DNA of 64,000 bases from Nitrobacter winogradskyi (GTDB lineage: Bacteria > Pseudomonadota > Alphaproteobacteria > Rhizobiales > Xanthobacteraceae): positions 87,660 to 151,659 of the forward strand of contig NZ_BJNF01000016.1 of the NCBI RefSeq assembly GCF_006539545.1, in the 5' to 3' direction. Below, one piece after another: positions 47,109 through 63,952 of the stretch; the stretch's first letter is position 1; each line of letters opens with the position of its first letter. A program made the translations under genes and the position numbers. A model generated the notes under the pieces. It searched no databases. It was not told the origin of the DNA and worked only from the letters and a program-made list of their open reading frames with translations.

Positions 47109-50078
47109 CTACAATCCGATGCCTCTTCCCCTGCCGAGGCCGTGACTGAGGGCAAGTTGACGCCCGAGCCTCATCCCTGAGTCGAAATCCATGCCGATGC
47201 CGAGTTGCTTCTTGCGGCCTTCGAGCAGGGATTCGAGCTGCGGGTCGCGTTCGAGGGTGGCGACCATGTTGCCCATCTCCGCGCGCGCGGCTCTGTGGCC
47301 GGAATAGTTGCCCGCCGTATATTGCCGGTTGCCGGTCTGCTTGAGTTCCCGGAACCGTTCCACGAAACGATCCGCGCGGCGCTCCGGGCTGGTGCGAATC
47401 TCGGTTTCGAGCTGGAGGGCGCGGATGGCGCGATTGACCTTGCCCGATCCCGCCTCATGGGCAAGGCTCTCATCCTTGGCATAGGCCGCTTCCGCGTCCT
47501 GCCAGCCATAGGGCCGCACCTCATCGAATGCCTTACGGGAATCGACCAGTTCTTCCCATTGTGCGGGGCTTGCCTTGCTCCCGACATCCTCGGCGTTGAA
47601 GACCTGGCCAACGGCATGGGCATGGCGGATGAGCGCCATTCTGCGGGCGTGGCGCAAGGCGTCTTCCGAATCTATTCCGGCGTCCCGCGCCACCGCCTCG
47701 ATCTCCTGCTTTATCCCCCCGCCGGTCGTCTCTCTTTCCAGCCCTTCTGCGCCGTCACGAGGTTCGCGCACGCTGAAGATAATATCGTCGATCCGGTCAA
47801 GGGCATTGTCCGGGCCGGGTATCCGTTCAACGGCAGCATCATGGGCATGGGAGGCAATACCGCGCCTCTCAGCGTAGCTCTGCGCCGGTTCGTAGTCCGT
47901 CGCCATATCCTTGGCCCGGTCCCGCGACAGGGTGTTGATGAGTTTGTCCTGACTGGCGAAGTCGTCGCGGCCGTAATGCAGGTCCATACCGTCGCGGTGC
48001 CGGGACAGGGCGACATAGCTGCCGTGGGCGTCCAAGCCCGGCGTCGCCAATACATGCGTCCGGTCCACCGTCATGCCCTGCGCCTTGTGGATGGTCGCGG
48101 CATAGCCGTGGTCGATGCGGTCGTAGTCTTTCAGATCAAACGAGATGCCGCGCCCGTCATCGGTCTGCACGGTCATGGACTGTGTGCTGACCTGTTCGAT
48201 GGTGCCGAGCGTGCCATTCTTTACGCCAAGCCCGCGCTCATTTTGCAGGAACATGACGCGATCCCCGGCGGCGAAGTTTCTTTCTCCGCGTTCAACGGTT
48301 ACGCGCACGTCCTCGCCCAGATCGCCAGCGTCCTGCATTCTGTCGCGGGCGGCTTCATTGAGATTGCGCACCTCGGCATTGGTGTGGGTAAGAATGATGC
48401 GGCTACTGTCGGGGGATGCCTGCCGGTCGCGGTCCCAGCGGTCGATCAGATCGTCACGCGCCTGCTCGCGGGTCTGCGCCTCATGCACCATGTCGTGCGC
48501 GTCATAGGCATGGATCGCCGCGCCGGTCGTCCCCGTTGCCAGATCGCGGGTCGCGTCACGCTGCCAGTCCTCACGCTGGCGCCACACCTCGCCGATCTCC
48601 GCGCCGCCGTGGCGTTCGTGGATAGAACGGAAGGCCGCGCCTGCCTCGATGGATTGCAGCTGCTGCGGATCGCCGACCAGCACCACCTTTGCGCCGACTT
48701 CCTGCGCATGAGACAGCACCCGCTCCAATTGCCGCGTGCCGACCATGCCCGCCTCGTCGATCACCAGCACATCGCGGGACGTGAGCATGTCGCGGCCGTT
48801 CTTCCAGCCGTGCTCCATGCTGGCGATGGTGCGGGAGGCGATGCCCGATCCGCTTTCCAGATTCTCGGCGGCAATGCCCGACAGCGCCACACCGCGAACC
48901 TCATAGCCCGACGCTTCCCAAGCCTCGCGGGCAACGCCAAGCATGGCGCTCTTTCCCGTCCCGGCATAACCGACGACAATGCCAAGGTCGCGCCCGTCAG
49001 TGACATGCGCCAGCGCATCGGCCTGCTCGCCGGAAAGGACAAGGCCGCGCTGTTCGGCGCGGGCAAGTGCTGCCTGTTTGTCGGCCTCGTTCACTTCATG
49101 GCGTTCGCGCTCGGCCATCATCTCGGCAGCGCGGTGTAACCGCTGTTCGGCCTCGATCATCTCGCGGGTCGTGAACCGATCCTCGCCCCGGCCGTCTTGC
49201 CCAAGTTCGACCAGATCGGGCGAGCCGCGCATCGCGCCCATGACTTCGTTGAACTGGTCGATGCCGTCACTGTGCCGATGCGCAAACATCGCCATGTCGC
49301 GCCGCGTGAAGGTCGATTGTTGATGTGTGATCGCATCCAGCGCAACGGAAGGATCGGCGATGATGCGCGCGCCGTTGTTGCGCGCGATCTCGCGGTGCAT
49401 GTCGGCGCGGTCTGCGGCCTCGATCCCTTCGCCCTCGATCCGCTGCGCAGGCGCGCCGATCTGGCTTTGCGGCTCAAGCCCGATCCCCTGCGCCTCAAGG
49501 CTGCGGTGGTCGATGCGGGCATCTATGTCGAGTTCGGCCAGCCGCTCGTTGACATGCTCGGCCCAGCGTTCGCGCCACCGCTCCACCATCTCCGTGCGGT
49601 TCCAGTCCCGCACCTTCTGGCCGAAACCGTTCTCGTCCACGCTGCGCATGGTGAGCATGACATGGGCATGGGGTTTGGGGCTTCCGTCCTCGCCGATGTC
49701 CCAATGCACATTGAGGTCGGCGATCATACCCTGATCGACAAATTCGGCTTGGGCGAAGTCGCGGGCAAGCTCGATGCCCTGCGCCTGCGTCATCTCGCGC
49801 GGAATGGCGAACTCCACCTCGCGGGCAAGCTGTGCGTCCTTGCGCACCTCGAACGCTTCAACGTCGTTCCAGAGCCGTTCGCGGTCGGACCAGACTTCGG
49901 GCGCACTATCCGGCAACATGATCTCGGAATGGACGACGCCGCGCTTGCTGGAAAAATCCTGCACGCGGTCGATGCGCTCGTCGCGCAGCCGCGAGGCCGA
50001 ACGATAGGCGGCGGACGCAACCGCGCTGCTTCCGGCCTTGCGGCCAATGACCTTGACGTGAAGATGATAGATCGCCAT
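47109..50078 (-). CDS. traA: Ti-type conjugative relaxase/helicase TraA
   Basis: This 989-residue protein combines a MobA/MobL relaxase domain with a TraI/RecD-like helicase. The relaxase has the presumed catalytic Y25 in ASAAYRSAS and the metal-binding histidines in HWDIGEDGSPKPHAHVMLT. The helicase has Walker A VGYAGTGKSAML and Walker B VLVIDEAGMVGTRQ, then IHKAQGMTVDRTHV and YVALSRHRDGMDL. It nicks oriT and unwinds the strand to be transferred. It is full length for TraA proteins that lack a long C-terminus. Gene order traA divergent from traC-traD copies the Ti plasmid. The start at the MAIYHLHVK methionine matches the family. Confidence 0.95.
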   Translation of the reverse strand: MAIYHLHVKVIGRKAGSSAVASAAYRSASRLRDERIDRVQDFSSKRGVVHSEIMLPDSAPEVWSDRERLWNDVEAFEVRKDAQLAREVEFAIPREMTQAQGIELARDFAQAEFVDQGMIADLNVHWDIGEDGSPKPHAHVMLTMRSVDENGFGQKVRDWNRTEMVERWRERWAEHVNERLAELDIDARIDHRSLEAQGIGLEPQSQIGAPAQRIEGEGIEAADRADMHREIARNNGARIIADPSVALDAITHQQSTFTRRDMAMFAHRHSDGIDQFNEVMGAMRGSPDLVELGQDGRGEDRFTTREMIEAEQRLHRAAEMMAERERHEVNEADKQAALARAEQRGLVLSGEQADALAHVTDGRDLGIVVGYAGTGKSAMLGVAREAWEASGYEVRGVALSGIAAENLESGSGIASRTIASMEHGWKNGRDMLTSRDVLVIDEAGMVGTRQLERVLSHAQEVGAKVVLVGDPQQLQSIEAGAAFRSIHERHGGAEIGEVWRQREDWQRDATRDLATGTTGAAIHAYDAHDMVHEAQTREQARDDLIDRWDRDRQASPDSSRIILTHTNAEVRNLNEAARDRMQDAGDLGEDVRVTVERGERNFAAGDRVMFLQNERGLGVKNGTLGTIEQVSTQSMTVQTDDGRGISFDLKDYDRIDHGYAATIHKAQGMTVDRTHVLATPGLDAHGSYVALSRHRDGMDLHYGRDDFASQDKLINTLSRDRAKDMATDYEPAQSYAERRGIASHAHDAAVERIPGPDNALDRIDDIIFSVREPRDGAEGLERETTGGGIKQEIEAVARDAGIDSEDALRHARRMALIRHAHAVGQVFNAEDVGSKASPAQWEELVDSRKAFDEVRPYGWQDAEAAYAKDESLAHEAGSGKVNRAIRALQLETEIRTSPERRADRFVERFRELKQTGNRQYTAGNYSGHRAARAEMGNMVATLERDPQLESLLEGRKKQLGIGMDFDSGMRLGRQLALSHGLGRGRGIGL

Positions 50079-50099
50079 CGCGATCAAGCATTGCCACGG

Positions 50100-50142
50100 C
50101 CAAGCGCACGTCGGAACGACGTATAAGCGCGCCCTCCCTCGA
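50100..50142 (+). promoter_or_regulatory. Origin of transfer (Ti-type oriT)
   Basis: A perfect hairpin ACGTCG-GAA-CGACGT (50108-50122) is followed directly by ATAAGCGCGCCCTCC. This closely resembles the nick region of Ti/RSF1010-class origins (TAAGTGCGCCCT). It lies in the intergenic space between divergent traA and traC, exactly where oriT is in Ti plasmids. The remaining bases to the traC start presumably hold promoters. Confidence 0.8.
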
Positions 50143-50249
50143 AAAAATCTCGGGATGGACCGGGCTGTGCCAGACCGTCCCGGCAACAATACTGCGTTTC
50201 GCGCCACGCGCAACTATCATCGCTGCATCAACAGCTTATGGAGGTGATG

Positions 50250-50847: not shown

Positions 50848-51174
50848 ATGGCGGGCGGCGCGGAGACCTCACATATCGCAGCGCCGCCCGCCATCGCGCG
50901 GCAACGCCGCGCAAAGACACGCAAGCAAAAATGGAACGGAAGGAAAGCCGTCACGGCGCAACGCTCTGGATGGCTGACAAGCGTCAAAGCGATGAGCGAG
51001 AAAGCATTGGCGCTCTGGGCCGCAAAGGGGAAAGAGGCGTTCGAGGCTGAGCGCAACAGCGTCGTGGGGATGTTTAGACTCCGAACCGCTCCCGCATGTC
51101 TGCGGCCTTCGCCCATTCGTCGCCGGGTATCCGGTCGATCAGTTCCTTCATCACCCGGACAAACGTGGTCTTGA
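50848..51174 (+). CDS. Possible small protein after traD (doubtful)
   Basis: A 108-codon frame begins 3 bases after the traD stop. Its middle (EKALALWAAKGKEAFEAERN) looks protein-like, but the last 34 codons overlap the 3' end of the convergent AbiEii gene and have little protein character. No family is recognised. It could be a genuine short gene, a remnant of the deleted traG region, or a chance frame. Confidence 0.25.
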   Translation: MAGGAETSHIAAPPAIARQRRAKTRKQKWNGRKAVTAQRSGWLTSVKAMSEKALALWAAKGKEAFEAERNSVVGMFRLRTAPACLRPSPIRRRVSGRSVPSSPGQTWS

Positions 51175-51934
51175 GGGTTTCGTCGGTCAGAGCTTTGGCG
51201 CGATCCGTTGCAAGCAATGGGCGCATGTCGGTGAAGAAGGTCGGATTGGCAAGTTTTTGGAACATGCGCTGCTGCGCTTCGGCCCTCGAAATCGTAGTCT
51301 CCGCCTTTTCGAGATAGAGGCGGAAACATGCGATGATCCTGGCGGTGTCCAGCCCATCGAACACGGTGAGCGCGTGATCGAGGTCGAACAGGTCGCGGCC
51401 CTTGTTGCGCTGAAGCAAGGCCCGCAACTTGGTCGCCAGCATTTCCTCCCGCGAGAATGTCGGGATTGCGACCCTGCCGATGAACCACGGATTTTCGATG
51501 CCGAACAGTATCTCGATGGGCGGATCGTAGGCTTCCCGCTCGCGCGTGTTGATCTCGATTTTGAGGTTGATGCGCACGTCGGCGGGTTCGCCTTCCGCAT
51601 CGACGCGAAAGCGAAGCTTGGGAGCGACGGGGCTTGGATCGGACTTTGCCTTGCCAAGCCACGGTTCCAGCACGGCGCGAACACCATCGAGGACTGGCCC
51701 AATCGGGCCGGCGCTCGTTCGCACGAGGTCGATGTCTTCCGAATAGCGCAGCGGCGCGGGGAAATGCAGCTTGTTGAGCGCCGTGCCGCCACGGAAGCGC
51801 AGTTCGCCGCGCAAGAACGGATCGGAGAAGATAGCGACAAGCGCGCGGCTGATGATGAGGTCTTGCTCGACCTGCCGCTGGCTTGCCCACGGCGCGACAC
51901 GGCTCCAGGCAGTGATGTAATCCTGCGGGATCAT
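51074..51934 (-). CDS. AbiEii-type nucleotidyltransferase toxin
   Basis: This 286-residue protein belongs to the AbiEii/AbiGii nucleotidyltransferase toxin family. The signature FRGGTALNKLHF with SEDIDLVRTS gives the G-G/S and D-x-D elements of the nucleotidyltransferase active site. In AbiE systems the toxin transfers nucleotides to target tRNA or other molecules and causes growth arrest on phage infection. Its ATG overlaps the antitoxin stop by 4 bases, so the pair is translationally coupled. Length is normal for the family. Confidence 0.92.
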   Translation of the reverse strand: MIPQDYITAWSRVAPWASQRQVEQDLIISRALVAIFSDPFLRGELRFRGGTALNKLHFPAPLRYSEDIDLVRTSAGPIGPVLDGVRAVLEPWLGKAKSDPSPVAPKLRFRVDAEGEPADVRINLKIEINTREREAYDPPIEILFGIENPWFIGRVAIPTFSREEMLATKLRALLQRNKGRDLFDLDHALTVFDGLDTARIIACFRLYLEKAETTISRAEAQQRMFQKLANPTFFTDMRPLLATDRAKALTDETLKTTFVRVMKELIDRIPGDEWAKAADMRERFGV

Positions 51935-52758
51935 TCGTCGATCTCCGGCGGCCGGCGGACGATCACGCGCCAGCGTGCATCGCGTTCGGATGGCGGCGGC
52001 GACAAATCAGGATCGCCCGCCTGCTTGGGATCGAGTTCGACCCACGGCAGCGATCCGCGCGCCGACAGCGCCACGAACATCGCCTCCGCGATCTGCGGAT
52101 GCCCCAGCCTTCCGAGCAGATGCCCGAGGCGCTGCACGACCGCCTTCTCGAAAGCGCCCGACAGGGCGGCGAGCTTTTTAGGTTGCAGCCGTTCGGCAAG
52201 CTCGGAAAGCACCGTCGCGATGTTGTCTAGACCTGCGCCGGACTGCGGGTAGCGCACCAGATCGAGCGCCGTGAGTTCCGGCGAGGACAGCTTCATATAG
52301 CCCGATTGCGTCTTGCGATCTTCGATTCCCGCCGCCACCGCCGTCATACCCTTGCGGTAGGAAAAGACGATTCGCGTCCGCCCCGCCTCGATGTCGGGCA
52401 GGAGCTTATTCGTGACGACCTGAAACTCCATCACGGCCTGGTGGGAAGCGCCGTGGGCCGTCGCCGCCGTCAGCAGCCCTACATAGTAGGGTCGCTGCTC
52501 ATGGCGCATTAGGGCGTCGATGTACCATTCCGGCGGCGGCGCTCCTGCCGTGGCGTGCTGGGGCGGCACTACCACATAGAAGCCGCGTCGGGGCCGGATA
52601 AGCTGGCCGTGCCGCTGCAAACGCTCGGCGGCGTCGAGGAACGCGCCCCGGCTGACGCCGATCTCCTTCTGTGCCTCATCCGCAGAAAAGACCCCCCGGC
52701 CCCTGGCAAGCAAGCCGGAAGCGTAGGAGGATAAGGCTGATCGTTCGATTCGAATCAT
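51931..52758 (-). CDS. AbiEi-family antitoxin
   Basis: This 275-residue protein has an N-terminal winged-helix-like segment (VFSADEAQKEIGVSRGAFLD) typical of AbiEi antitoxins, and a long C-terminal domain. AbiEi proteins bind their own promoter through inverted repeats and neutralise the toxin without tight complex formation in known type IV cases. It is the upstream member of the operon. The intergenic region ahead of it contains inverted repeats, listed separately. Confidence 0.9.
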   Translation of the reverse strand: MIRIERSALSSYASGLLARGRGVFSADEAQKEIGVSRGAFLDAAERLQRHGQLIRPRRGFYVVVPPQHATAGAPPPEWYIDALMRHEQRPYYVGLLTAATAHGASHQAVMEFQVVTNKLLPDIEAGRTRIVFSYRKGMTAVAAGIEDRKTQSGYMKLSSPELTALDLVRYPQSGAGLDNIATVLSELAERLQPKKLAALSGAFEKAVVQRLGHLLGRLGHPQIAEAMFVALSARGSLPWVELDPKQAGDPDLSPPPSERDARWRVIVRRPPEIDE

Positions 52759-52960: not shown

Positions 52961-53155
52961 ATGACCGACGAAATCCTGACGATCCGGGAGGTGGCCGAGC
53001 TTCTCAAGCTCAATGAGAAGACCGCCTACAAGCTCGCCCTCGCGGGCGAGATTCCCGGCTTCAAGGTCGGCGGATCGTGGCGTTTCGAGCGGCAGGCAAT
53101 CGCAAGCTGGATCAAGCGCAAGGTCGAGGAGCAACAGAAAGAACGGCCGGCATGA
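52961..53155 (+). CDS. Excisionase/MerR-like HTH protein upstream of the defence-like operon
   Basis: This 64-residue protein is a single helix-turn-helix of the HTH_17/excisionase type: ILTIREVAELLKLNEKTAYK, then the wing FKVGGSWRFERQAIASWI. It lies 19 bases before the methyltransferase gene on the same strand and is probably the first gene of that operon. It may act as a local repressor or as a recruitment factor. The ATG at 52961 is the only one giving a complete HTH. Confidence 0.9.
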   Translation: MTDEILTIREVAELLKLNEKTAYKLALAGEIPGFKVGGSWRFERQAIASWIKRKVEEQQKERPA

Positions 53156-53174: not shown

Positions 53175-55940
53175 ATGAACGCCGTCGAGATCGAGGAAGC
53201 CATATCGGCGCTTGCCGAACTGCCGTTCGACGGCGGCGAGTTCCCGTTTGCCTTCCTGCAAGCCTTCGGCAACAAGGACGCCACGATCAAGCGGCTGCGG
53301 GCCGGCGCGTCGAATAGCTCCGACCTCGGCGGCGTCCTGCAACGCAATCACATTCATATCGCCGTTTGCGTGCCGGGCGCGGCGACGGCGGCTCTGGCCG
53401 CCTTAAAAGTCAGCCCTGCCACGACGAAGGCGAAGGCGCGTTTCATCCTCGCCACGGACGGCGTAGCCTTCGAGGCGGAAGATTTGGATACAGGCGAAAC
53501 GGTCGCCTGCACCTATGCCGACTTCCCTAACCATTTCGGATTCTTCCTACCGCTTGCCGGGATCACCACCGTTAAGCAGGTGCGCGAAAGCTCGTTCGAC
53601 ATCCGGGCGACCGGCCGCCTGAACCGGCTTTATGTGGAGTTGTTGAAGGACAACCCTGATTGGGGCGCTGCCGACCGCCGCCCCGACATGAATCACTTCA
53701 TGGCGCGGCTGATCTTTTGCTTCTTCGCCGAAAGCACGGACATCTTTTTCGGCGACGATCTATTCACGGCGACGGTTGCGCAGATGGGCGCGAAGGACTC
53801 GTCCAACACCCATGAGGTGATCGGGACGCTGTTCCGCGCCATGAACACGAAGATCGAGGATCGCGCGGCGGCTAACATCCCCCGCTGGGCGGATGCGTTT
53901 CCTTATGTGAACGGCGGCCTGTTTTCCGGCAGTATGGATGTGCCGCGCTTCAGCCGGATCGCTCGCTCCTACCTTATCCACATCGGCGGTCTCGACTGGA
54001 AGAAGATCAACCCCGACATCTTCGGTTCGATGATTCAGGCCGTTGCGGAGGACGAGGAGCGCGGCGCGCTCGGGATGCACTACACGAGCGTTCCGAACAT
54101 CCTGAAGGTGCTCAATCCGCTATTCCTCGACGATCTGCGCGCGCGGCTCGACGAAGCCGGGGACAACCCCCGCATGTTGCTGAACCTACGCAAGCGCATG
54201 TCGCGGATCAGGGTCTTCGACCCGGCCTGCGGCTCCGGCAATTTCCTTGTCATCGCCTACAAGCAGATGCGGGAGATCGAGGCCACGATCAACAGTCGGC
54301 GCGGCGAACCGGACAGGCGGAGCGAAATCCCGCTGACCAATTTCCGGGGGATCGAGCTGCGCAGCTTCCCGGCCGAGATCGCGCGGCTGGCCCTTATCAT
54401 CGCCGAATATCAGTGTGATGTCCTTTATCGGGGCCAGAAGGAAGCCCTGCGGGACTTCCTGCCGCTCGACGCTGAGAACTGGATCACCTGCGACAATGCC
54501 CTGCGGCTGGACTGGTTGAGCGTCTGCCCTCCAACTGGGACCGGCGTAAAGCATCAAGCCGACGACCTATTTCATACGCCGCTCGATCAAGCGCAGATCG
54601 ACTTTGTGAACGAGGGCGGCGAAACGTACATCTGCGGAAATCCGCCATACTACGGGAGCCGAAAACAGACCAAGCACCAGAAGGATGACCTTTTACAGTT
54701 ATGCGGAAAGCGGATTCCAAAGTGGAAGTCTTTGGATTATGTTGCTGGATGGTTCCTTAAAGGCAAAGACTATATCGAAAGGCAACCCGCAACATTTGCA
54801 TTTGTCTGCACGAGTTCAAATTGCGAGGGGCTCCAGGTTTCAGTACTTTGGAAGGAGATACTTCAGGGCGGTATTCATATCACCTTCGCGTATCGTCCAT
54901 TCAAATGGGCGAATCTGGCCACCAACAACGCAGGTGTTACAGTTAATATCGTCGGCGTCTCCAATCTTGTATCCAGATCCGACAGGAAAATCTTTGATGG
55001 AGGCCAAGTTAGGTCGGTCAATAATATTAGTCCTTACCTACTTTCTACATCAAACATCTTCGTAGACACCTCTCCAAAGCCACTCTCGCAACTGTCCCCC
55101 ATGATTACTGGCAGCATGCCTAGGGATGGGGGACACCTCATTCTATCATTCGATGAGGCAGCCGAACTCACGCACGCGCATCCGCACGCAGCAGATTTCA
55201 TCCGTCCCTATGTTGGAACCGATGAGCTGATCAAAGGCAATCAACGCCAATGTCTTTGGATAGAGGACGACCAACTGTCCGTTGCCACGACAGTTCCCTA
55301 TATTGCAAACAGGCTTGAAAAGGTCCGCCTTATGCGAACCGAAAGCCCCCTAGATTCTACTCAGGAGTTCGCGGATAGACCGCACAGGTTCGTTTATCTG
55401 GCTGGGCAATCGCGCTCTCACACGATAGGAGTAGGAGGGGTCTCCTCTGAAAGTCGAGAGTACCTCCCTGTCGCGCTCTTTGATAAGCGCGCAGTTCTGA
55501 GCAATCTCGCCTATGCACTATACGATGCGCCCGTTTTCAGCATCGCGCTTATCGCTTCACGTTTGCATCTCGTCTGGATTGCAACAGTGTGCGGCAAGTT
55601 GGAAACCCGATACCGTTATTCCAACACGCTCGGCTGGAATACCTTTCCAGTGCCGACGCTCACAGAGAAGAACAAGGCCGATCTGACTCGCTGTGTCGAG
55701 GACATCTTGTTGGCGCGCGAGGCGCATTTCCCGGCGACCATCGCCGACCTTTACGATCCCGACAACATGCCCCCCGACCTGCGCGAAGCCCATGAGCGCA
55801 ACGATGAAGTGTTGGAGCGCATCTATATCGGCCGCCGGTTCCGCAACGACACCGAGCGGCTGGAAAAGCTATTCGAGCTTTACACCAAGATGACCGCCGA
55901 AGCAGGGGTGGGGAAGAAACGAAAGGTGAGCGCCGCATGA
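53175..55940 (+). CDS. MmeI-like DNA adenine methyltransferase without visible nuclease domain
   Basis: This 921-residue class I methyltransferase has the SAM motif FDPACGSGNFL starting at F348 and the catalytic NPPY (N489-Y492), as in N6-adenine methyltransferases of the MmeI/type IIL group. The helical spacer and target-recognition parts follow. The D/E-x-K nuclease motif found in MmeI-type N-termini is not visible; the N-terminus instead reads SSDLGGVLQRNHIHIAV. It would methylate host DNA in a sequence-specific way. Bases about 54,640-55,660, the putative target-recognition part, look clearly more AT-rich than the rest. It overlaps the next gene in ATGA. A GGGGG site precedes the ATG at 53175. 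Confidence 0.88.
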   Translation: MNAVEIEEAISALAELPFDGGEFPFAFLQAFGNKDATIKRLRAGASNSSDLGGVLQRNHIHIAVCVPGAATAALAALKVSPATTKAKARFILATDGVAFEAEDLDTGETVACTYADFPNHFGFFLPLAGITTVKQVRESSFDIRATGRLNRLYVELLKDNPDWGAADRRPDMNHFMARLIFCFFAESTDIFFGDDLFTATVAQMGAKDSSNTHEVIGTLFRAMNTKIEDRAAANIPRWADAFPYVNGGLFSGSMDVPRFSRIARSYLIHIGGLDWKKINPDIFGSMIQAVAEDEERGALGMHYTSVPNILKVLNPLFLDDLRARLDEAGDNPRMLLNLRKRMSRIRVFDPACGSGNFLVIAYKQMREIEATINSRRGEPDRRSEIPLTNFRGIELRSFPAEIARLALIIAEYQCDVLYRGQKEALRDFLPLDAENWITCDNALRLDWLSVCPPTGTGVKHQADDLFHTPLDQAQIDFVNEGGETYICGNPPYYGSRKQTKHQKDDLLQLCGKRIPKWKSLDYVAGWFLKGKDYIERQPATFAFVCTSSNCEGLQVSVLWKEILQGGIHITFAYRPFKWANLATNNAGVTVNIVGVSNLVSRSDRKIFDGGQVRSVNNISPYLLSTSNIFVDTSPKPLSQLSPMITGSMPRDGGHLILSFDEAAELTHAHPHAADFIRPYVGTDELIKGNQRQCLWIEDDQLSVATTVPYIANRLEKVRLMRTESPLDSTQEFADRPHRFVYLAGQSRSHTIGVGGVSSESREYLPVALFDKRAVLSNLAYALYDAPVFSIALIASRLHLVWIATVCGKLETRYRYSNTLGWNTFPVPTLTEKNKADLTRCVEDILLAREAHFPATIADLYDPDNMPPDLREAHERNDEVLERIYIGRRFRNDTERLEKLFELYTKMTAEAGVGKKRKVSAA

Positions 55941-56770
55941 GCAGCCTCACCGACATCGAAAAACGCTATTTTGAAAAGTTGCTCGGGATGCAGAGCGGCT
56001 ATGTTCTGGACTATTCCGATGCGACGTTTGGCGAATTTTTCAACCGCCACCGGGTCAACATTCACGGCCAGAAGTATCAGACCTACGGCAGTTCCAAGGC
56101 CAAGAAGATGCGGGCTTTCTGGGAACAAGAGCCCGATGTTCTGGTCGGAAAAGTGCTTGGAGAGATGCTGGATGCCTATGAGGCAGACTGCACCCTGAAC
56201 AATCGCGATGCAGAGGCGTCGGTTCTCGAAAAGTCGCGCGGCATCGTCGCGCGTCTTTCAGGGGTGCGCGCGCCTGCAAAACCGACCCAGACCATTGACG
56301 ACTTTCTGCATAGCGAATTTTCGATTCCCAACATTCAGAAATTGCCGATTGAGGCGATGGCCGTGCCGATCATCGAGAGTCGCCTGAACGAAGCGCGGGC
56401 GGCAATGGGCGCGGGCGCGTACCTCTCTACTATCTTCCTGTGTGGTAGCGTGCTGGAGGCGGTCCTTCTCGGAGCGGCACAGAAAGAGCCTGCGCGCTTC
56501 AACAGGGCTTCGGCCAGCCCGAAGGCCGTGGACGGCAGCGTGAAGCGTTTCCACGAATGGAGCCTCGCACAGTTCATAGATGTCGCCTGTGAGGCTGGGT
56601 TGCTGAAGCCGGACGTGAAGAAGTTCAGTCACGGGCTTCGGGATTTTCGCAACTACATCCATCCATACGAACAAATGGTATCCGGCTTCACACCGGACGA
56701 ACATACGGCGAAAGTCTGTTTTCAGGTGCTGAAGGCGGCGCTTGCCAGCGTAGCGGGGGAAAGAAAATGA
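55937..56770 (+). CDS. HEPN-type protein of the methyltransferase operon
   Basis: This 277-residue protein has an N-terminal domain of about 100 residues with GYVLDYSDATFGEFFNRHR and SKAKKMRAFWEQEPDVLVG. A C-terminal helical domain carries R235-x6-H242 (RDFRNYIH), the HEPN signature of many RNases and abortive-infection proteins. The N-terminal part resembles domains seen in AbiJ-like and HEPN-associated proteins, but I cannot name it with confidence. It starts within the ATGA of the methyltransferase stop and overlaps the helicase start likewise. It may act as RNA-targeting effector or as an assembly factor. Confidence 0.75.
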   Translation: MSSLTDIEKRYFEKLLGMQSGYVLDYSDATFGEFFNRHRVNIHGQKYQTYGSSKAKKMRAFWEQEPDVLVGKVLGEMLDAYEADCTLNNRDAEASVLEKSRGIVARLSGVRAPAKPTQTIDDFLHSEFSIPNIQKLPIEAMAVPIIESRLNEARAAMGAGAYLSTIFLCGSVLEAVLLGAAQKEPARFNRASASPKAVDGSVKRFHEWSLAQFIDVACEAGLLKPDVKKFSHGLRDFRNYIHPYEQMVSGFTPDEHTAKVCFQVLKAALASVAGERK

Positions 56771-58824
56771 AGCCAGAAGCCAAATCCATTCCCTCCGTCT
56801 CCGTCACCTATGCGCACAACGGCGGCTCGACCAAGGCCAACTCGCTCGGCATGAGGCCCATGCAAGAGCGCGTCTATGAGAAGCGCGGTGAGCAATATCT
56901 TCTCATCAAGTCGCCGCCGGCTTCCGGCAAGAGCCGCGCGCTCATGTTCGTCGCCCTCGACAAACTCGCCAACCAGGGGCTCAAGCAAGCCATTATTGTC
57001 GTGCCGGAGAAAAGCATCGGCGCGAGCTTCAACGACGAGCCGTTGTCCCGCTTCGGATTCTGGACCGACTGGATGGTCGCGCCGAAATGGAACCTCTGCA
57101 ACGCCCCCGGCTCGGACAATGGCGGCAAGGTCAATTCGGTCGAGGCTTTCCTGAACAGCGACGACAAGGTGCTGGTCTGCACCCATGCCACCTTCCGCTT
57201 CGCCGTGGACAGGTTCGGGGTGGAAGCCTTCGACGACCGACTGATCGCCATAGACGAGTTCCATCACGTCTCGGCCGATCCAGACAGCAAGCTCGGCCAG
57301 CACCTCGGTCAACTGATCGCCCGCGAAAAGACGCATATCGTGGCGATGACCGGCTCTTACTTCCGTGGCGACGCCGTGCCGGTGCTGGCCCCACAGGACG
57401 AGGCCAAGTTCGAGTCCGTCACCTACACCTATTACGAACAGCTCAACGGCTACGAATATCTGAAGCAGCTCGACATCGGTTATTTCTTCTATTCCGGCTC
57501 CTATGCAGACGACATCCTCGCGGTACTCGATCCCACCGAGAAGACCATCGTCCATATTCCGAACGTCAATTCGCGCGAAAGCACGAAGGACAAGATCAAG
57601 GAAGTGGAACACATCATCGGCGCGCTCGGCGACTGGCAGGGCATCGACGCTGCCACGGGATTCCAGCTCGTCAAGACGCCGGGTGGCCGGACGCTCCGCA
57701 TCGCCGATCTCGTCGATGACGAAGCGAACAAGCGCGACCGTGTTTCCCTGGCGCTGAAAGACCCCACGCAGAAGAACAACCGCGACCATGTGGACATCAT
57801 CATCGCGCTGGGCATGGCCAAGGAAGGCTTCGACTGGATCTGGTGCGAACACGCGCTGACCGTCGGCTATCGCTCCAGCCTCACCGAGATCGTGCAGATC
57901 ATCGGCCGCGCGACCCGCGATGCGCCGAACAAGACCCGCGCGCGCTTCACCAATCTGATCGCCGAACCCGATGCCGCCGAGGATGCCGTGACCGAGGCCG
58001 TCAACGACACGTTGAAGGCCATCGCCGCCAGCCTGCTCATGGAGCAGGTGCTTGCCCCGCGCTTTGAGTTCAAGCCGAAGAACCCGCAAAGCGGGCCGAC
58101 CCCAGGCTTCGACTATGGTGAAGGCGGCTACGATCCGAACAAGTGCAATGTTGGTTTCAGCGAGGAGCGCGGTGTCTTCCAGTTCGAGATCAAGGGCCTT
58201 GTCGAGCCCAAGAGTCACGAGGCTGCGCGCATCTGCCAGCAGGATTTGAACGAGGTGATCGCCGCCTTCGTTCAGGACAAGACCACCATCGAGCGCGGTC
58301 TGTTCGACGACGAGCTGGTGCCCGAGGAACTGACGCAGGTTCGTATGGGCAAGATCGTGAAGGACAAATATCCCGAGCTGAGCGACGAAGACCAGGAGGC
58401 GGTCCGCCAGCACGCTATCGCCGCGCTCAACATCACTCAGCAGGCCAAGCAATCCATGCTTGATCGCGTGAACGGCGAACCGACCGCCAACACCGCCCTG
58501 ATCGATGGCGTGCGCAAGTTTGCGATGGACGTGCGCGAACTCGACATCGACCTGATCGACCGCATCAACCCGTTCAAGGAAGCTTATTCGATCCTCGCCA
58601 AAACGATGAACGAGGAACGCTTGCAACAGGTGAAAGCCGCGATTGCCGCGAAGCGCACCACGCTGACGCCGGAGGAGGCGAAGGAATACGCCGTGCGCGC
58701 GGTCAAGTTTAAGAAGGAGCGCGGACGGCTGCCCTCAATCAGCTCGACCGATGCCTGGGAGAAGCTGCTGGCCGAAGGCGCAGCCGCCTTCGTGCGCTTC
58801 AAGGATGAGGGCCGCTATGAGTGA
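56767..58824 (+). CDS. SF2 DEAD/DEAH-box helicase of the methyltransferase operon
   Basis: This 685-residue protein has Walker A PPASGKS (K55), motif II D163-E164-F165-H166 (a DExH box), motif III VAMTGSYF and motif VI Q377-IIGRATR. Together they form an SF2 type III-restriction-like helicase core. The C-terminal 80 residues (VKFKKERGRLPSISSTDAWE) resemble a helicase-associated module. It could translocate DNA to find or process unmodified target sites. It overlaps its upstream neighbour by 4 bases and the next gene by 8. Confidence 0.9.
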   Translation: MKPEAKSIPSVSVTYAHNGGSTKANSLGMRPMQERVYEKRGEQYLLIKSPPASGKSRALMFVALDKLANQGLKQAIIVVPEKSIGASFNDEPLSRFGFWTDWMVAPKWNLCNAPGSDNGGKVNSVEAFLNSDDKVLVCTHATFRFAVDRFGVEAFDDRLIAIDEFHHVSADPDSKLGQHLGQLIAREKTHIVAMTGSYFRGDAVPVLAPQDEAKFESVTYTYYEQLNGYEYLKQLDIGYFFYSGSYADDILAVLDPTEKTIVHIPNVNSRESTKDKIKEVEHIIGALGDWQGIDAATGFQLVKTPGGRTLRIADLVDDEANKRDRVSLALKDPTQKNNRDHVDIIIALGMAKEGFDWIWCEHALTVGYRSSLTEIVQIIGRATRDAPNKTRARFTNLIAEPDAAEDAVTEAVNDTLKAIAASLLMEQVLAPRFEFKPKNPQSGPTPGFDYGEGGYDPNKCNVGFSEERGVFQFEIKGLVEPKSHEAARICQQDLNEVIAAFVQDKTTIERGLFDDELVPEELTQVRMGKIVKDKYPELSDEDQEAVRQHAIAALNITQQAKQSMLDRVNGEPTANTALIDGVRKFAMDVRELDIDLIDRINPFKEAYSILAKTMNEERLQQVKAAIAAKRTTLTPEEAKEYAVRAVKFKKERGRLPSISSTDAWEKLLAEGAAAFVRFKDEGRYE

Positions 58825-60040
58825 CCTCGACCTTGATGAACTGCGCAACGAACTCGCGGATTTCGCCCAGCCTGAAAAGAAGGGCGGACGCTCCGCACGC
58901 GAGGAACGCATCATCGCGGGCTTCGAGGAAATTCAGCGTTTCGTCGATCAGCATGGCCGTGCCCCGCAACATGGCGAGGAGCGTGATATTTTCGAGCGGC
59001 TTTACGCCACGCGGCTCGACCGCCTGCGCGCGCTGGAAGAGTGCCGTTCTCTTCTTACATCACTCGATCATCAAGGCTTGCTTGCGGGTGCAGAGGATGC
59101 GGTTGCCGCTCCGGCGGAGGAAATGGACGACGATGAATTGCTCGCCGAGCTGGAGGGCGCGGCAGGCACGACGGACATCACCGATGTTCGCCACGTCCGC
59201 ACCACCGCCGAAAAGCGCGCCGCCGAGGAAATCGCCAACCGTGAACGGTGCGAGGACTTCCCCCGCTTCAAGCCGCTATTCGATACCGTCCAGGCTGACA
59301 TCGACAGCGGCGCGCGCATCACCCAACCGATCCGCAAGGACGCTGGCTTCCTGAAAACCGACATCAAGGCTGGGGAGTTTTTTATCCTTGGCGGACAGAT
59401 CGCCTACGTCGCCGAAGTCGGCGAACCCTTCAAAGCGCCGAATGGCGAAAGCGACGCCCGCCTGCGCGTCATCTATTCCAACGGCACAGAGAGCAACCTG
59501 CTACTCCGGTCCCTGCAACGCGCGCTCTACAAGGACGAAACCAGCCGCAGCGTGTCCGAGCCGAGCGCCGGGCCGTTGTTCGCCAGCGAAAGCGAAACCG
59601 ACGACCTCGCCAGCGGCACCATTTATGTGCTGCGTAGCCAGTCGGACAATTCCACTGTCGCCGCCAACCGCAACCTCGTTCACAAGATCGGCGTCACCGG
59701 CAGCGATGTCGTAAAACGTATCGCCAACGCCAAGCTGGACCCGACTTTCCTATTGGCGGACGTGGAGATCGTAGCGACCTACAAGCTCTACAACATCAAC
59801 CGCACCCGGCTGGAAAACCTGATCCACCGCATCTTCGGCCCCGCACGGCTCGACATCGAGATCAAGGATAGGTTCGGCAACCCGGTCATCCCGCGTGAAT
59901 GGTTCCTCGTGCCGTTGTTCGTGATCGACGATGCGGTGGAGAAGATCAAGGACGGCACGATTACGGGATTTGTCTACGATCCGAAGACCGCCAGTCTTGT
60001 AAAGCACAGCGCGTCGCCCTTGCCGGGGAATTTGGCATGA
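58817..60040 (+). CDS. GIY-YIG family protein of the methyltransferase operon
   Basis: This 407-residue protein has an N-terminal stretch with FVDQHGRAPQHGEERDIFER, similar to the helicase-associated module on the helicase C-terminus. An acidic linker follows. The C-terminal part looks GIY-YIG/T5orf172-like: I269-YVL, H289-KIGVTG, a conserved Arg in KRIANA and the catalytic-type E333 in LENLIHRIF. It could be the DNA-cutting component. The GIY and YIG tripeptides are relaxed (IYV and HKIG), so activity is not certain. It overlaps the helicase gene by 8 bases and ends inside the next start (ATGA). Confidence 0.8.
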   Translation: MSDLDLDELRNELADFAQPEKKGGRSAREERIIAGFEEIQRFVDQHGRAPQHGEERDIFERLYATRLDRLRALEECRSLLTSLDHQGLLAGAEDAVAAPAEEMDDDELLAELEGAAGTTDITDVRHVRTTAEKRAAEEIANRERCEDFPRFKPLFDTVQADIDSGARITQPIRKDAGFLKTDIKAGEFFILGGQIAYVAEVGEPFKAPNGESDARLRVIYSNGTESNLLLRSLQRALYKDETSRSVSEPSAGPLFASESETDDLASGTIYVLRSQSDNSTVAANRNLVHKIGVTGSDVVKRIANAKLDPTFLLADVEIVATYKLYNINRTRLENLIHRIFGPARLDIEIKDRFGNPVIPREWFLVPLFVIDDAVEKIKDGTITGFVYDPKTASLVKHSASPLPGNLA

Positions 60041-62040
60041 GCAATGTCAACGTCAAGCGGCTGGTCGAGAACATTCGTTCCGGCACCAATATATACACAC
60101 CGTTGGTAGAGCTGGTCGTGAATGCGATTCAGGCCATCGACGCAAAAGGCATACAGAACGGCTTGGTCGAAATCGAAGTTCTCCGAAACGGACAAGCCGA
60201 CATAATCGATCGCCTCGAGGAGGTTGACGGCTTTAGGGTTAAGGATAACGGCATAGGCTTCACCAAGACCAACCGCGACGCCTTCGACACTCTCTACACC
60301 GAGCAGAAAATCGCGGATGGAGGCAAAGGATTCGGCCGCTTCACCTGCCTGAAATATTTTGACCGGGTGAAGGTATCCAGCACCTTCGCCGAAGGCGATG
60401 CCTTCCATGACCGTTCTTTCAGGATGGGCTTGGACAAGGACATCATCGTCGATGAAAAGGAAGGTCCGTCTCAGGCGCAGGCGGCCGGCGCTACCATCGA
60501 GATTTCTGGTATCAAGTCGGTCAGATTTCCCGATAAGAAGCTGGAAACCATCAGCCGTGTTGTGGTGGAGCGGTTGCTGTCCTATTTCGTGGATCAAGAT
60601 CGCCCCTGTCCGAGCGTGGTGATCCGGGAAGCCAAGAATCCATCCGATTCCCTCTCCCTCAATGACTATCTAGGCAAGGAGAACAGCCAGATCGTCGAGA
60701 TGAAGGTGGACGAAGGGACGTTTTCGCTATCAGCGAACGAAGATAAAAAATCCTTTCAGGTCCGCGTGTTCAAATTCTTCGCGCCGCGAATGGCGAAGAG
60801 CAAGATCAGTCTTGTCGCGCATCGGCGGGAGGTGACGGACAATCCGCTCCAAACATACATTCCTGAATTTGGGGAGGAGTTCTTCGAGCCGGGGCCGGAT
60901 CAGGATTTGGCCAAGGGACGCAACTTCGTCATCAAAGCCTATGTGTTCGGCGACTACCTGAACGATAACGTATCTCTCGAAAGAGGCGAGTTTCGTTTTC
61001 AAACCGACACTGACCTATTGAACGGCATATCCCAGACCGACATCGAGCAGAAGGCCGCCGAGATCGCGCAATCGGCGGTGGGCGCGGAGATCGCCGAACG
61101 GAAGAAGCGCAAGGAGGTGCGCATCGCTGAGTATGTGACCAATGACGCGCCCTGGCATCGCATCCTTGCAAAAGAGGTGGATTTCAGCGCCTTGCCCATG
61201 CGGCCATCAAATCAGGACATCGAGCTTCACCTTCAAAAGAAAAAGTATGAGCAGGAGATAACGACGCGAGCGCAGGTCACGGCGCTGCTGAAGTCGGAAA
61301 ACCCCGATGAGCTTGGCGAGAAAATCTCACAGTTGATCGAAAAGATTTCAGACACCAGCAAGAACGACCTGATCCACTACGTCTCCATGCGCAAATGCGT
61401 CCTTGAGTTATTTTCCAAGTCGCTGGAAATCGGAGCCGAAGGAAAACACAAGTCCGAAGGCGATGTGCATGACATCATCATGCCGCGCAAGAAGGACTCT
61501 GAGGAATTGAATTACGACGCGCATAATCTCTGGATTTTGGACGAGCGGCTGAATTTCACATCCTATGTATCGTCCGACAAACCCCTGCAATCGTCGAGGG
61601 ACCGCACTGACATCACCGTCTATAATCGCCGCGTGGCCTATCGTGGCGACAATGAAGCCAGCAATCCCATCACGATTTTCGAGTTCAAGAAGCCGCAACG
61701 GGACGATTTTGCCGACCCGTCCTCGAAGGAAGACCCAGTTCAGCAGATTATCCGCTACGTCAATCAAATCCGGGAGGGCAAGTTCAAGACCCCGACCGGA
61801 CGCGACATCCTTGTGAACGATACGACACCGTTCTACGGCTATGTCGTCTGCGACCTGACCAAAAAGGTCAAAGACTGGCTCCAAAAGGAGAAGAATTTTA
61901 CCCCGATGCCCGACGGGCTCGGATGGTTCAACTGGTTCGGCAACATCAGCCTTTATATGGAGGTGGTTAGCTGGACAAAGCTGCTGCGCGACGCGGAAAT
62001 GCGGAACAAGATTTTCTTCAACAAGCTCGGTATCGACTGA
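60037..62040 (+). CDS. GHKL ATPase with PD-(D/E)XK-like motif
   Basis: This 667-residue protein has a GHKL (gyrase/Hsp90/MutL-type) ATP-binding domain at the N-terminus: E25-x3-N29 in ELVVNAIQAID, D70-x-G72-x-G74 in KDNGIGF, and G95-G-K-G-F-G100. A C-terminal region has D525 (RTDITVY), then E549-x-K551 (TIFEFKKPQ), giving a D-x23-E-x-K pattern of PD-(D/E)XK nucleases. ATP-driven clamp closure linked to a nuclease would suit a damage- or foreign-DNA-sensing effector. It is the last gene of the operon and lies just before attR. Confidence 0.85.
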   Translation: MSNVNVKRLVENIRSGTNIYTPLVELVVNAIQAIDAKGIQNGLVEIEVLRNGQADIIDRLEEVDGFRVKDNGIGFTKTNRDAFDTLYTEQKIADGGKGFGRFTCLKYFDRVKVSSTFAEGDAFHDRSFRMGLDKDIIVDEKEGPSQAQAAGATIEISGIKSVRFPDKKLETISRVVVERLLSYFVDQDRPCPSVVIREAKNPSDSLSLNDYLGKENSQIVEMKVDEGTFSLSANEDKKSFQVRVFKFFAPRMAKSKISLVAHRREVTDNPLQTYIPEFGEEFFEPGPDQDLAKGRNFVIKAYVFGDYLNDNVSLERGEFRFQTDTDLLNGISQTDIEQKAAEIAQSAVGAEIAERKKRKEVRIAEYVTNDAPWHRILAKEVDFSALPMRPSNQDIELHLQKKKYEQEITTRAQVTALLKSENPDELGEKISQLIEKISDTSKNDLIHYVSMRKCVLELFSKSLEIGAEGKHKSEGDVHDIIMPRKKDSEELNYDAHNLWILDERLNFTSYVSSDKPLQSSRDRTDITVYNRRVAYRGDNEASNPITIFEFKKPQRDDFADPSSKEDPVQQIIRYVNQIREGKFKTPTGRDILVNDTTPFYGYVVCDLTKKVKDWLQKEKNFTPMPDGLGWFNWFGNISLYMEVVSWTKLLRDAEMRNKIFFNKLGID

Positions 62041-62612: not shown

Positions 62613-62656
62613 ATTGGGTGCTCTCCTGCATTTTTTGACCGATCTGGAGGGTGCAG

Positions 62657-63952
62657 ATGCTGACCGACGCCGCCATCGAGGCACTGAAACCAAAAGATAA
62701 ATTATACAAGATTGTGGATCGTGACGGTATGTACGTCGTGGTCCAACCTTCAGGTTCAATCGTGTTCCGCTTGGACTACCGGCTCAACGGCCGTCGGGAG
62801 ACCCTGACGTTGGGTCGTTATGGCCCGGCGGGTCTATCTCTGGCCCGAGCGCGTGAGAAGCTGATTGATGCCAAGCGCGCGATTTCCGAGGGTCGCTCGC
62901 CGGCGCAGGAAAAGCAGCGCGAGAAGCGGAGGATCAAGGAAGCCAAGAGCTTCGGCCAGTTCGGTGAACGCTGGCTTCAGGAAGCTGGGATGGCGGACAG
63001 TACACGCGCGATGCGGCAGTCGATCTTCGAGCGCGACATCCTGCCGGCGTTTCGCAATCGACTGCTAACCGAGATCCTGCCAGAGGATCTGCGCGGGTTG
63101 TGCACGAAGGTAAAGGAACGCGGGGCGCCGGCAACAGCGGTCCACGTCAGAGACATTGTGAAGTTGGTTTTCGCCTTCGCCATCCTGCACGGGGAGAAGG
63201 TCGCCAACCCGGCCGACGAGGTTGGCCCATCGTCGATCGCGACCTTCATGCCGAAGGACAGGTCGCTATCTCCCGCGGAGATCCGCATCATGCTCGGACA
63301 GCTTGAGCATGTCCCGACGCTACCGACGATACCGACGATCCGTCTCGGGATAAAGCTGATCCTGCTCTCGATGGTGCGAAAGAGCGAATTGCAGGATGCA
63401 GTCTGGGACGAGGTCGATTTTGAGAACGCCGTCTGGTCGATCCCCAAGGAGCGAATGAAGCGCTCGAAGGCGCACAACGTCTATCTATCGCAGCAAATGC
63501 TCGACATCTTCATCGCTCTCAAGACCTGCGCCGGTAACTCGAAATACGTCCTGCCGTCGCGCTACGACGCTGACGCGCCGATGTCGCGGGCCACGTTCAA
63601 TCGGGTCACGGCGGCGGTGGTGGTGCGGGCCAAGAAGGAAGGAATCCCGCTGGAGTCCTTTACGGTTCACGATCTCCGACGCACCGGCTCGACTCTGCTG
63701 AACGAACTGGGCTTCAACAGCGACTGGATCGAGAAGTGCTTGGCGCACGAGGATGGCCGATCCTCACGGGGCATCTACAACAAGGCGGAATATGAGCACC
63801 AGCGCCGCCACATGATGCAGGAATGGGCCAACCTGATCGACGCCTGGGTTGGTGGTCAGAAATACGTGCCTACGCTCTATCCGGCTTCCATGGATCTTCT
63901 GGCCCCGGAGCCTAGCTGTTCAGTCCCGGCATTTGATGGATTGGGTTTATGA
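62657..63952 (+). CDS. Tyrosine-recombinase integrase of island 2
   Basis: This 431-residue integrase has the same domain layout as the first: an arm-binding DUF4102-type N-terminus (LYKIVDRDGMYVVVQPSG), a core-binding domain and a catalytic domain. The catalytic residues are R241 in SMVRKSEL, H338-x-x-R341 in HDLRRTGST and Y374 in GIYNKAEYE. A GGAGG site lies 6 bases before the ATG at 62657. It would integrate at guaA too; its gene follows the second guaA-end repeat directly. The downstream cargo is outside the window. Confidence 0.94.
   Translation: MLTDAAIEALKPKDKLYKIVDRDGMYVVVQPSGSIVFRLDYRLNGRRETLTLGRYGPAGLSLARAREKLIDAKRAISEGRSPAQEKQREKRRIKEAKSFGQFGERWLQEAGMADSTRAMRQSIFERDILPAFRNRLLTEILPEDLRGLCTKVKERGAPATAVHVRDIVKLVFAFAILHGEKVANPADEVGPSSIATFMPKDRSLSPAEIRIMLGQLEHVPTLPTIPTIRLGIKLILLSMVRKSELQDAVWDEVDFENAVWSIPKERMKRSKAHNVYLSQQMLDIFIALKTCAGNSKYVLPSRYDADAPMSRATFNRVTAAVVVRAKKEGIPLESFTVHDLRRTGSTLLNELGFNSDWIEKCLAHEDGRSSRGIYNKAEYEHQRRHMMQEWANLIDAWVGGQKYVPTLYPASMDLLAPEPSCSVPAFDGLGL

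What the first reader, a model, noticed from the sequence alone, without database searches (positions are those of the whole stretch)
53175..62040. Five-gene, fully overlapping operon: methyltransferase, HEPN protein, SF2 helicase, GIY-YIG protein and GHKL ATPase with nuclease-like motif; candidate new defence system
Seen directly: five genes with ATGA, ATGA, 8-base and ATGA overlaps, an HTH gene 19 bases upstream, all on a mobile island beside an abortive-infection pair. Known families: MmeI-like methyltransferases, SF2 helicases, GIY-YIG nucleases and GHKL ATPases all recur in anti-phage systems. The combination lacks PglZ/BrxC (BREX), DUF1998/DrmB/PLD (DISARM), Dnd/Ssp genes and HsdR/HsdS, so I cannot assign it to a named system. 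Inference: the methyltransferase marks self DNA; the helicase and GHKL ATPase sense unmarked DNA; GIY-YIG, PD-(D/E)XK-like or HEPN effectors act.
Basis: partly seen in the sequence, partly recalled or inferred. Interest (0 to 1): 0.9.

Follow-up and report, generated by a model that had tools for sequence, protein, structure and literature searches.

The report
Restriction operon with swappable defence genes
This stretch of a bacterial mobile island carries a known three-gene, restriction-like set (DNA methyltransferase, helicase, GIY-YIG nuclease-family protein) in which relatives hold different extra genes at two fixed places, here genes predicted to encode an RNA-cutting HEPN protein and an ATPase-nuclease, so it likely acts as a phage-defence platform into which back-up weapons are swapped.

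Summary
In detail: five genes with ATGA, ATGA, 8-base and ATGA overlaps, and an HTH gene 19 bases upstream. The reading as a new five-gene system is only partly right. Methyltransferase, helicase and GIY-YIG protein match, by domains and order, the DnmA-YeeB-YeeC cluster of Bacillus subtilis: an MmeI-type methyltransferase without nuclease motif, then motor and nuclease. A published Vibrio deletion study links it to phage resistance; the B. subtilis copy showed none. The three are present in 76 of 80 helicase-anchored loci (four stop at contig ends) and 17 of 17 from a class sample, though one GIY-YIG gene is truncated. HEPN (7 of 80) and GHKL-nuclease (5 of 80) are optional. HEPN occupies a slot between methyltransferase and helicase that is filled in 51 of 91 loci; the helicase/GIY-YIG junction is never opened (0 of 93). 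HEPN is unclustered on the helicase tree; RhuM is inherited in one clade. A second slot, after the GIY-YIG gene, holds the GHKL-nuclease or others (reverse transcriptases, GajA). All five recur in two loci of other genera. New variant of a known kind; defence is predicted, not tested.

The parts
52961..53155 (+). HTH_17 / excisionase-family DNA-binding protein (64 aa), candidate operon regulator
   Evidence: A related HTH lies 65 bases before the methyltransferase in 5 of 80 related loci. NCBIfam MAD1 model 70.4 bits, below its cut-off of 80.
53175..55940 (+). DnmA-type (MmeI-like) DNA adenine methyltransferase, 921 aa
   Evidence: Pfam MmeI_N, hel, Mtase, TRD, C; PDB MmeI 5hr4 E 1e-129; NPPY motif in 78 of 80 aligned rows.
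53322..53357 (+). place of the lost MmeI nuclease site (residues 50-61)
   Evidence: five fused MmeI-type comparators read IDL(L/F)W-(K/P)-G-x-LLVE(H/Q)K; here SDLGGVLQRNHIHIAVC; a loose D-x6-20-(E/Q)xK pattern in the first 140 residues occurs in 2 of 80 rows.
55050..55661 (+). target recognition domain, hypervariable
   Evidence: Pfam MmeI_TRD 626-829. Residues 501-830: median identity 46% against 79 relatives, the other parts 78-88%.
55937..56770 (+). HEPN-domain protein (277 aa) in cargo slot A
56639..56662 (+). HEPN catalytic-type motif RDFRNYIH
56767..58824 (+). YeeB-type SF2 helicase (685 aa)
   Evidence: Pfam DEAD/ResIII; nearly all residues of motifs I, II, III, V and VI the same in 96 of 96 rows.
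58817..60040 (+). YeeC-type GIY-YIG (T5orf172/MUG113) nuclease-family protein (407 aa)
   Evidence: domain residues 267-377; Y, HK-x-G, R, E and EWF in 91 of 91 rows.
60037..62040 (+). paraMORC3-type GHKL ATPase with C-terminal PD-(D/E)XK-like motif (667 aa), in downstream slot B
   Evidence: Model residues 1-357 match topoisomerase VI-B, MutL and MORC; E25, N29, N71-G72-x-G74 and G98-x-G100 invariant in 24 rows.
61609..61758 (+). nuclease-like motif D525...E549-x-K551...Q570xxxY574
   Evidence: invariant in 24 of 24 rows, two of them at 27% and 32% identity; this part of the model is low confidence.
62651..63952 (+). tyrosine integrase, mobile context
   Evidence: Phage_integrase and Arm-DNA-bind_3.
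51074..52758 (-). AbiEi/AbiEii pair, context only
   Evidence: AbiEii 339 bits, AbiEi 341 bits.

Best explanation
By domains and gene order the operon is a DnmA-YeeB-YeeC-type gene trio carrying two extra genes that relatives exchange or lack, and it is predicted to work as a split restriction-modification system with plug-in back-up effectors. Predicted steps: (1) the MmeI-type methyltransferase, whose own nuclease motif is gone (shown in sequence), would place N6-methyladenine on one strand of an asymmetric site and so mark the cell's own DNA. (2) At unmodified sites on incoming DNA it would load the YeeB helicase, which would travel along the duplex using ATP. (3) The YeeC GIY-YIG protein would cut. 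(4) The HEPN protein in slot A is likely an RNase held as second line, stopping translation if restriction fails. (5) The GHKL-nuclease in slot B is likely a separate ATP-gated DNA clamp that restricts foreign DNA by itself, like VcSduA. Shown: the gene order, motif loss and retention, the variety of slot contents and purifying selection. Inferred: every biochemical step.
For: All three genes present in 76 of 80 helicase-anchored loci; the other four stop at contig ends. All 17 loci of the 16 further genomes with the helicase among 385 of the class carry all three. Nuclease motif of the methyltransferase lost, helicase and GIY-YIG catalytic residues kept, so motor and cutter would have to come from the other two genes. 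The recognition domain is the fastest part, 46% against 78-88%; two relatives with 95-96% identical helicases share only 43-46% there, as expected if specificity is switched. Published: B. subtilis DnmA makes m6A in GACGAG; dnmA and yeeB deletions in V. crassostreae raised sensitivity to some phages (as cited in PMC9973331). Slot A filled in 51 of 91 loci, helicase/GIY-YIG junction in 0 of 93. Slot A contents include PADLOC candidate defence families PDC-S05 (RhuM), PDC-S02 (DUF1016) and PDC-S26; after the GIY-YIG gene PDC-S06, GajA, RT_UG19 and Drt3a occur. A 78% relative of the HEPN protein lies next to HsdM and HsdS. HEPN is unclustered on the helicase tree: 6 changes for 7 rows.
Confidence: 0.62

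Rival explanations
1. One integrated five-gene machine: methyltransferase, HEPN, helicase, GIY-YIG and GHKL proteins act together and all are needed.
For: Tight overlaps through all five genes; the same five families in the same order in L069 (Sphingopyxis terrae, with one more ORF) and L074 (Sphingomonas canadensis) at 68-81% identity; all five under purifying selection.
Against: 78 of 80 loci lack at least one of the two extras or are cut short. The nearest relatives by helicase (95-96%) have an empty slot A or other genes in it. The HEPN family is in 6 other genomes of the 385, none with the helicase; the GHKL family in 6 others, of which 4 lack the helicase.
Confidence: 0.12
2. A decayed restriction system: only the methyltransferase works, as an orphan that tunes gene expression, and the rest are passengers on the island.
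For: This is the authors' conclusion for B. subtilis DnmA-YeeB-YeeC. One relative (L016) has a truncated GIY-YIG gene.
Against: The window's copies are full-length with the catalytic motifs kept; helicase dN/dS 0.075, GIY-YIG 0.13-0.18; all three genes present in 17 of 17 class-sample loci; V. crassostreae deletions changed phage sensitivity (cited in PMC9973331).
Confidence: 0.12
3. A selfish stabilisation module: methyltransferase plus nuclease, AbiE and a HEPN toxin keep the mobile island in its host by post-segregational killing, and phage defence is incidental.
For: Integrase, relaxase/helicase-like gene and AbiE pair next door; toxin-type slot contents such as BrnT and zeta toxin elsewhere; HEPN toxins are common addiction toxins (recalled).
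Against: The second slot also holds GajA, reverse transcriptases and PDC-S06, which are not addiction modules (last point recalled); slot A is empty in 41 of 93 loci.
Confidence: 0.1

Closest known systems
DnmA-YeeB-YeeC cluster (B. subtilis; V. crassostreae homologues)
   Same: MmeI-type methyltransferase without nuclease motif, SF2 helicase, T5orf172/GIY-YIG protein, same order; matches the published description (PMC9973331, PMC7261158, passages).
   Different: Two further overlapping genes (HEPN, GHKL-nuclease) and an HTH gene; slots with exchangeable genes were not described in the passages I read (they mention an 'uncharacterized protein family' in the neighbourhood).
MmeI (type IIL restriction-modification)
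   Same: Homologous from residue 87 on; base-contact positions can be aligned.
   Different: D70...E80-x-K82 nuclease site absent; cutting and motor would be separate proteins (catalytic residues from PMC4833311, passages).
paraMORC3 / VcSduA (Shedu type I-D)
   Same: GHKL ATPase, S5 domain, C-terminal PD-(D/E)XK-like site; glutamate and lysine at 25 and 551 against 27 and 557 in VcSduA.
   Different: No match to Pfam or PADLOC Shedu models and none to one annotated Shedu nuclease; placed inside a restriction-like operon.
Genes embedded in type I R-M and Hma clusters (PrrC, TgvAB, HEC genes)
   Same: Defence genes inserted between the genes of a restriction operon (PMC3710099, PMC11411939, passages); one close HEPN relative is beside HsdM and HsdS.
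   Different: Host operon here is the DnmA-YeeB-YeeC trio; two fixed slots, one junction not opened in any of 93 loci.
Type III R-M (EcoP15I-like)
   Same: Would share one-strand methylation and an ATP-driven motor (inference).
   Different: MmeI-family methyltransferase instead of a Mod subunit; motor and nuclease on separate chains.

Membership tests
DnmA-YeeB-YeeC cluster | MmeI-type methyltransferase lacking the nuclease motif | tested here: met
DnmA-YeeB-YeeC cluster | SF2 helicase then T5orf172/GIY-YIG gene downstream, same strand | tested here: met
   genes present in this order in 76 of 80 and 17 of 17 related loci, one GIY-YIG gene truncated.
DnmA-YeeB-YeeC cluster | Direct sequence homology to named YeeB and YeeC of B. 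subtilis | tested here: inconclusive
   No B. subtilis sequence was compared. A plasmid homologue in such a trio is annotated YeeB; MmeI_N rings in B. subtilis alone of 14 control genomes.
DnmA-YeeB-YeeC cluster | m6A on one strand of a non-palindromic site | not testable with these tools
   Needs methylome data.
MmeI type IIL enzyme | D...E-x-K nuclease site in the N-terminal domain | tested here: not met
   2 of 80 rows show even a loose pattern.
Type I R-M | HsdM, HsdS and HsdR | tested here: not met
   No Methylase_S or HsdR match in the six proteins.
BREX / DISARM / Dnd | PglZ and BrxC; DrmA/DrmB; DndCDE | tested here: not met
   None among the six proteins. Partial hits only: methyltransferase to DrmMI 98 bits and PglX 27 bits (type IIG model 907 bits), helicase to PbeA 20 bits.
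MADS | mad1-mad8 proteins | tested here: not met
   HTH 70.4 bits under cut-off 80; MAD2 12.5 bits under 720.
paraMORC3 | GHKL plus S5 domain, conserved ATP-binding motifs | tested here: met
   Motifs; residues 1-357 match GHKL-plus-transducer structures.
paraMORC3 | C-terminal REase-fold nuclease with E-D-ExK | tested here: inconclusive
   D525, E549-x-K551 and Q570 invariant, but the fold of this part is low confidence.
Shedu type I-D | DUF4263 nuclease domain | tested here: not met
   No Pfam or PADLOC match (two relatives each); hhalign with one annotated Shedu protein 0.3%. Remote kinship is not excluded.
HEPN superfamily | R-x4-6-H motif | tested here: met
   R235-x6-H242 in 32 of 32 rows.
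HEPN superfamily | HEPN helical fold | tested here: inconclusive

The most novel reading that the evidence does not exclude
DnmA-YeeB-YeeC loci are a plug-in immune platform: a constant motor-cutter pair and a specificity-switching methyltransferase, with two translationally coupled docking slots whose effectors, drawn partly from the same pool as those inside type I restriction operons, are kept silent by the working core and released when restriction is blocked. The helicase would double as guard of its own failure.
Probability: 0.3. Interest if true: 0.78.

Novelty: new variant of a known kind. Interest (0 to 1): 0.5.

Why it matters
The trio is common (helicase in 17 of 385 genomes of the class sample; in 98 of 5426 E. 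coli genomes, 90 of them over most of its length), yet the PADLOC library gave only weak partial hits for its helicase and GIY-YIG protein, so annotation by it would miss the set. The two slots are a source of untested candidate defence genes, some without a Pfam match. Because close relatives differ mainly in slot contents and recognition domain, they make a clean natural experiment on whether back-up effectors sense the failure of a restriction system, an idea best known from PrrC (described in PMC3710099).

Full report
OBSERVATION. All coordinates hold. HTH 52961-53155, methyltransferase 53175-55940, HEPN 55937-56770, helicase 56767-58824, GIY-YIG 58817-60040, GHKL 60037-62040, with ATGA, ATGA, 8-base and ATGA overlaps. 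Pfam gives five MmeI domains, DEAD/ResIII, MUG113/T5orf172, HATPase_c just under its cut-off, and for HEPN only a DUF4145 hint at E 0.15. dN/dS against relatives ranges from 0.03 (HEPN) to 0.21 (methyltransferase) in the nine of ten comparisons where dS was finite.

THE KNOWN CORE. The GIY-YIG gene follows it in 79 of 80 loci and the methyltransferase precedes it in 77 of 80; the exceptions L040, L048, L081 and L067 stop at contig ends. In nine of the 77 the methyltransferase is cut by, or in L067 also split near, the contig start; in L016 only the first 65 residues of the GIY-YIG protein match although the contig goes on. In an even sample of 385 genomes of the class, 17 have the helicase including the window's own; the 17 loci of the other 16 genomes all have matches to all three, three methyltransferases being cut by contig ends and L102 being the same contig as L016. 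This order is that of dnmA-yeeB-yeeC in B. subtilis. PMC9973331 and PMC7261158 (passages) report that DnmA is an MmeI homologue lacking the endonuclease motif, that YeeB is an SF2 helicase and YeeC a T5orf172/GIY-YIG protein at the first and second positions downstream, that deletions in the B. subtilis trio changed infection by none of three phages, and that deletions of dnmA and yeeB in Vibrio crassostreae increased sensitivity to some phages. A plasmid trio is annotated with the name YeeB, and the MmeI_N model rings in B. subtilis alone of 14 control genomes. I compared no named B. subtilis YeeB or YeeC sequence.

CATALYTIC STATE. Five fused MmeI-type relatives (L133-L137) read IDL(L/F)W-(K/P)-G-x-LLVE(H/Q)K where the trio's methyltransferases read SD-x-GGVLQ-x-x-(N/H)IH; a loose D...(E/Q)xK occurs in 2 of 80. 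MmeI needs D70, E80 and K82 (PMC4833311, passages). The methyltransferase motifs DPACGSG (80 of 80) and NPPY (78 of 80) are kept. Motifs I, II, III, V and VI of the helicase are kept in essentially all of 96 rows and the GIY-YIG residues in 91 of 91 rows long enough to align. So modification, motor and cutter would be on three chains. The recognition region has median identity 46% to 79 relatives, the other parts 78-88%; L014 and L015 have 96% and 95% identical helicases but 43% and 46% there.

SLOT A. Between methyltransferase and helicase 51 of 91 non-redundant loci have a gap of 250 bases or more; between helicase and GIY-YIG 0 of 93 (the class loci L101, L102 and L105 repeat L015, L016 and L086 and were dropped). 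By ORFs, 52 of 93 loci have at least one ORF and 41 none (window and L101 included). ORF families by similarity, each named from one to three members scanned: RhuM (10 ORFs), the window's HEPN (7 loci plus window), DUF1016/YhcG nuclease (6), a 260-aa family without Pfam match (6), a 286-aa family (4), PLD-like (3, weak), Schlafen AlbA_2 with HATPase_c_4 (3), BrnT (3), and singletons including PDDEXK_4, zeta toxin, YobI-ATPase and, by eye, PIN. Some singletons are doubtful, one being a piece of the L067 methyltransferase. On a quick helicase tree of 96 rows the HEPN label needs 6 changes for 7 rows (shuffle mean 6.8; 75 of 500 shuffles as low), that is, no clustering; L069, which has HEPN plus another ORF, was labelled apart. 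Against this, RhuM is shared by all seven rows of one clade, so some cargo is inherited. Among the nearest helicases the slot holds HEPN (window), a 286-aa gene (L014), a 238-aa gene (L016) or nothing (L015). Against L034 the methyltransferase 3' end and HEPN have dS about 0.4 while the methyltransferase 5' part and helicase have 0.8; against L022 HEPN and helicase agree at 0.76 and 0.75. So one pair shows a likely block transfer, the other does not. The Spearman test was inconclusive.

SLOT B. An ORF starts at the ATGA of the GIY-YIG stop in 13 of 94 rows (3 rows end at contig ends): GHKL-nuclease in 5 including the window, PLD-like in 4 (no Pfam match, weak ZacB hit), TrlF/Ppl-like in 2, PDC-S06 in 1, and a deaminase-like ordinary gene in 1 (by eye). 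Less tightly placed genes include RT_UG19 (L014), Drt3a (L065), GajA (L027) and a sixth GHKL-type protein (L093). Full-length matches to the window's GHKL protein are in 5 of 80 loci (L015, L046, L058, L069, L074). The GHKL family also occurs without the trio on plasmids, some beside type I or other restriction genes. It fits paraMORC3 (PMC2292703, parts 1-2 of 4 read). VcSduA, of that architecture, restricts phages and needs its ATPase glutamate and nuclease lysine (PMC12137116, section 12). The window protein has both residues but does not match Shedu models.

MECHANISM. Core: predicted split restriction-modification, resembling type III in logic (one-strand mark, ATP motor) but with another methyltransferase family. 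HEPN: predicted second-line RNase. GHKL-nuclease: predicted independent ATP-gated nuclease. The integrated five-gene reading is weakened because 78 of 80 loci lack one or both extras or are cut short; it is kept as a rival because L069 and L074 carry all five.

NOVELTY. The trio and the idea of embedded defence genes are known (PMC3710099, PMC11411939, passages). What I did not find in the held papers is the two-slot layout of this trio with its closed helicase/GIY-YIG junction. E. coli carries the helicase in 98 of 5426 genomes; the two that I read have the trio with slot A empty.

Noticed in passing
window 51074-52758: AbiEi/AbiEii pair on the minus strand directly before the operon.
   Followed up: yes
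window 47109-50213: Relaxase/RecD-helicase-like gene (RecD/Tra ATPase hits; MobA/TraA by eye), suggesting a conjugative or mobilizable element.
   Followed up: partly
window 62651-63952: Tyrosine integrase; the contig ends at the window's last base, so the island's right end is unseen.
   Followed up: partly
L040:4401-4472: Only the last 23 residues of the GHKL protein remain, 100% identical, after an intact GIY-YIG gene: a fresh-looking deletion of the slot B gene.
   Followed up: no
L016:4003-4197: GIY-YIG gene matches only over its first 65 residues (89% identity) although the contig continues: a truncated or replaced copy.
   Followed up: partly
L014:7933-10017 and L065:13301-14647: Defence reverse transcriptases (RT_UG19, Drt3a) 3 and 23 bases after the GIY-YIG gene.
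   Followed up: partly
L124:7817-12808: 78% relative of the HEPN protein in the order HsdM-HsdS-HEPN-M78 peptidase with 4-base overlaps on both sides of HEPN.
   Followed up: yes
L009:7919-14004: On a Celeribacter plasmid a 54% relative of the GHKL-nuclease overlaps a 4086-base gene annotated restriction endonuclease by 4 bases.
   Followed up: no
window 55937-56257: Residues 1-107 of the HEPN protein match plasmid proteins named 'abortive infection family protein', the rest not, so this looks like a mobile N-terminal domain.
   Followed up: no
L035, L038, L039, L058, L067, L070: A 260-aa slot A family; the member scanned (L035) has no Pfam or PADLOC match, a candidate unknown effector.
   Followed up: no
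L014:3815-4675 and kin L032, L047, L055: A 286-aa slot A family; the member scanned (L014) has no clear Pfam or PADLOC match.
   Followed up: no
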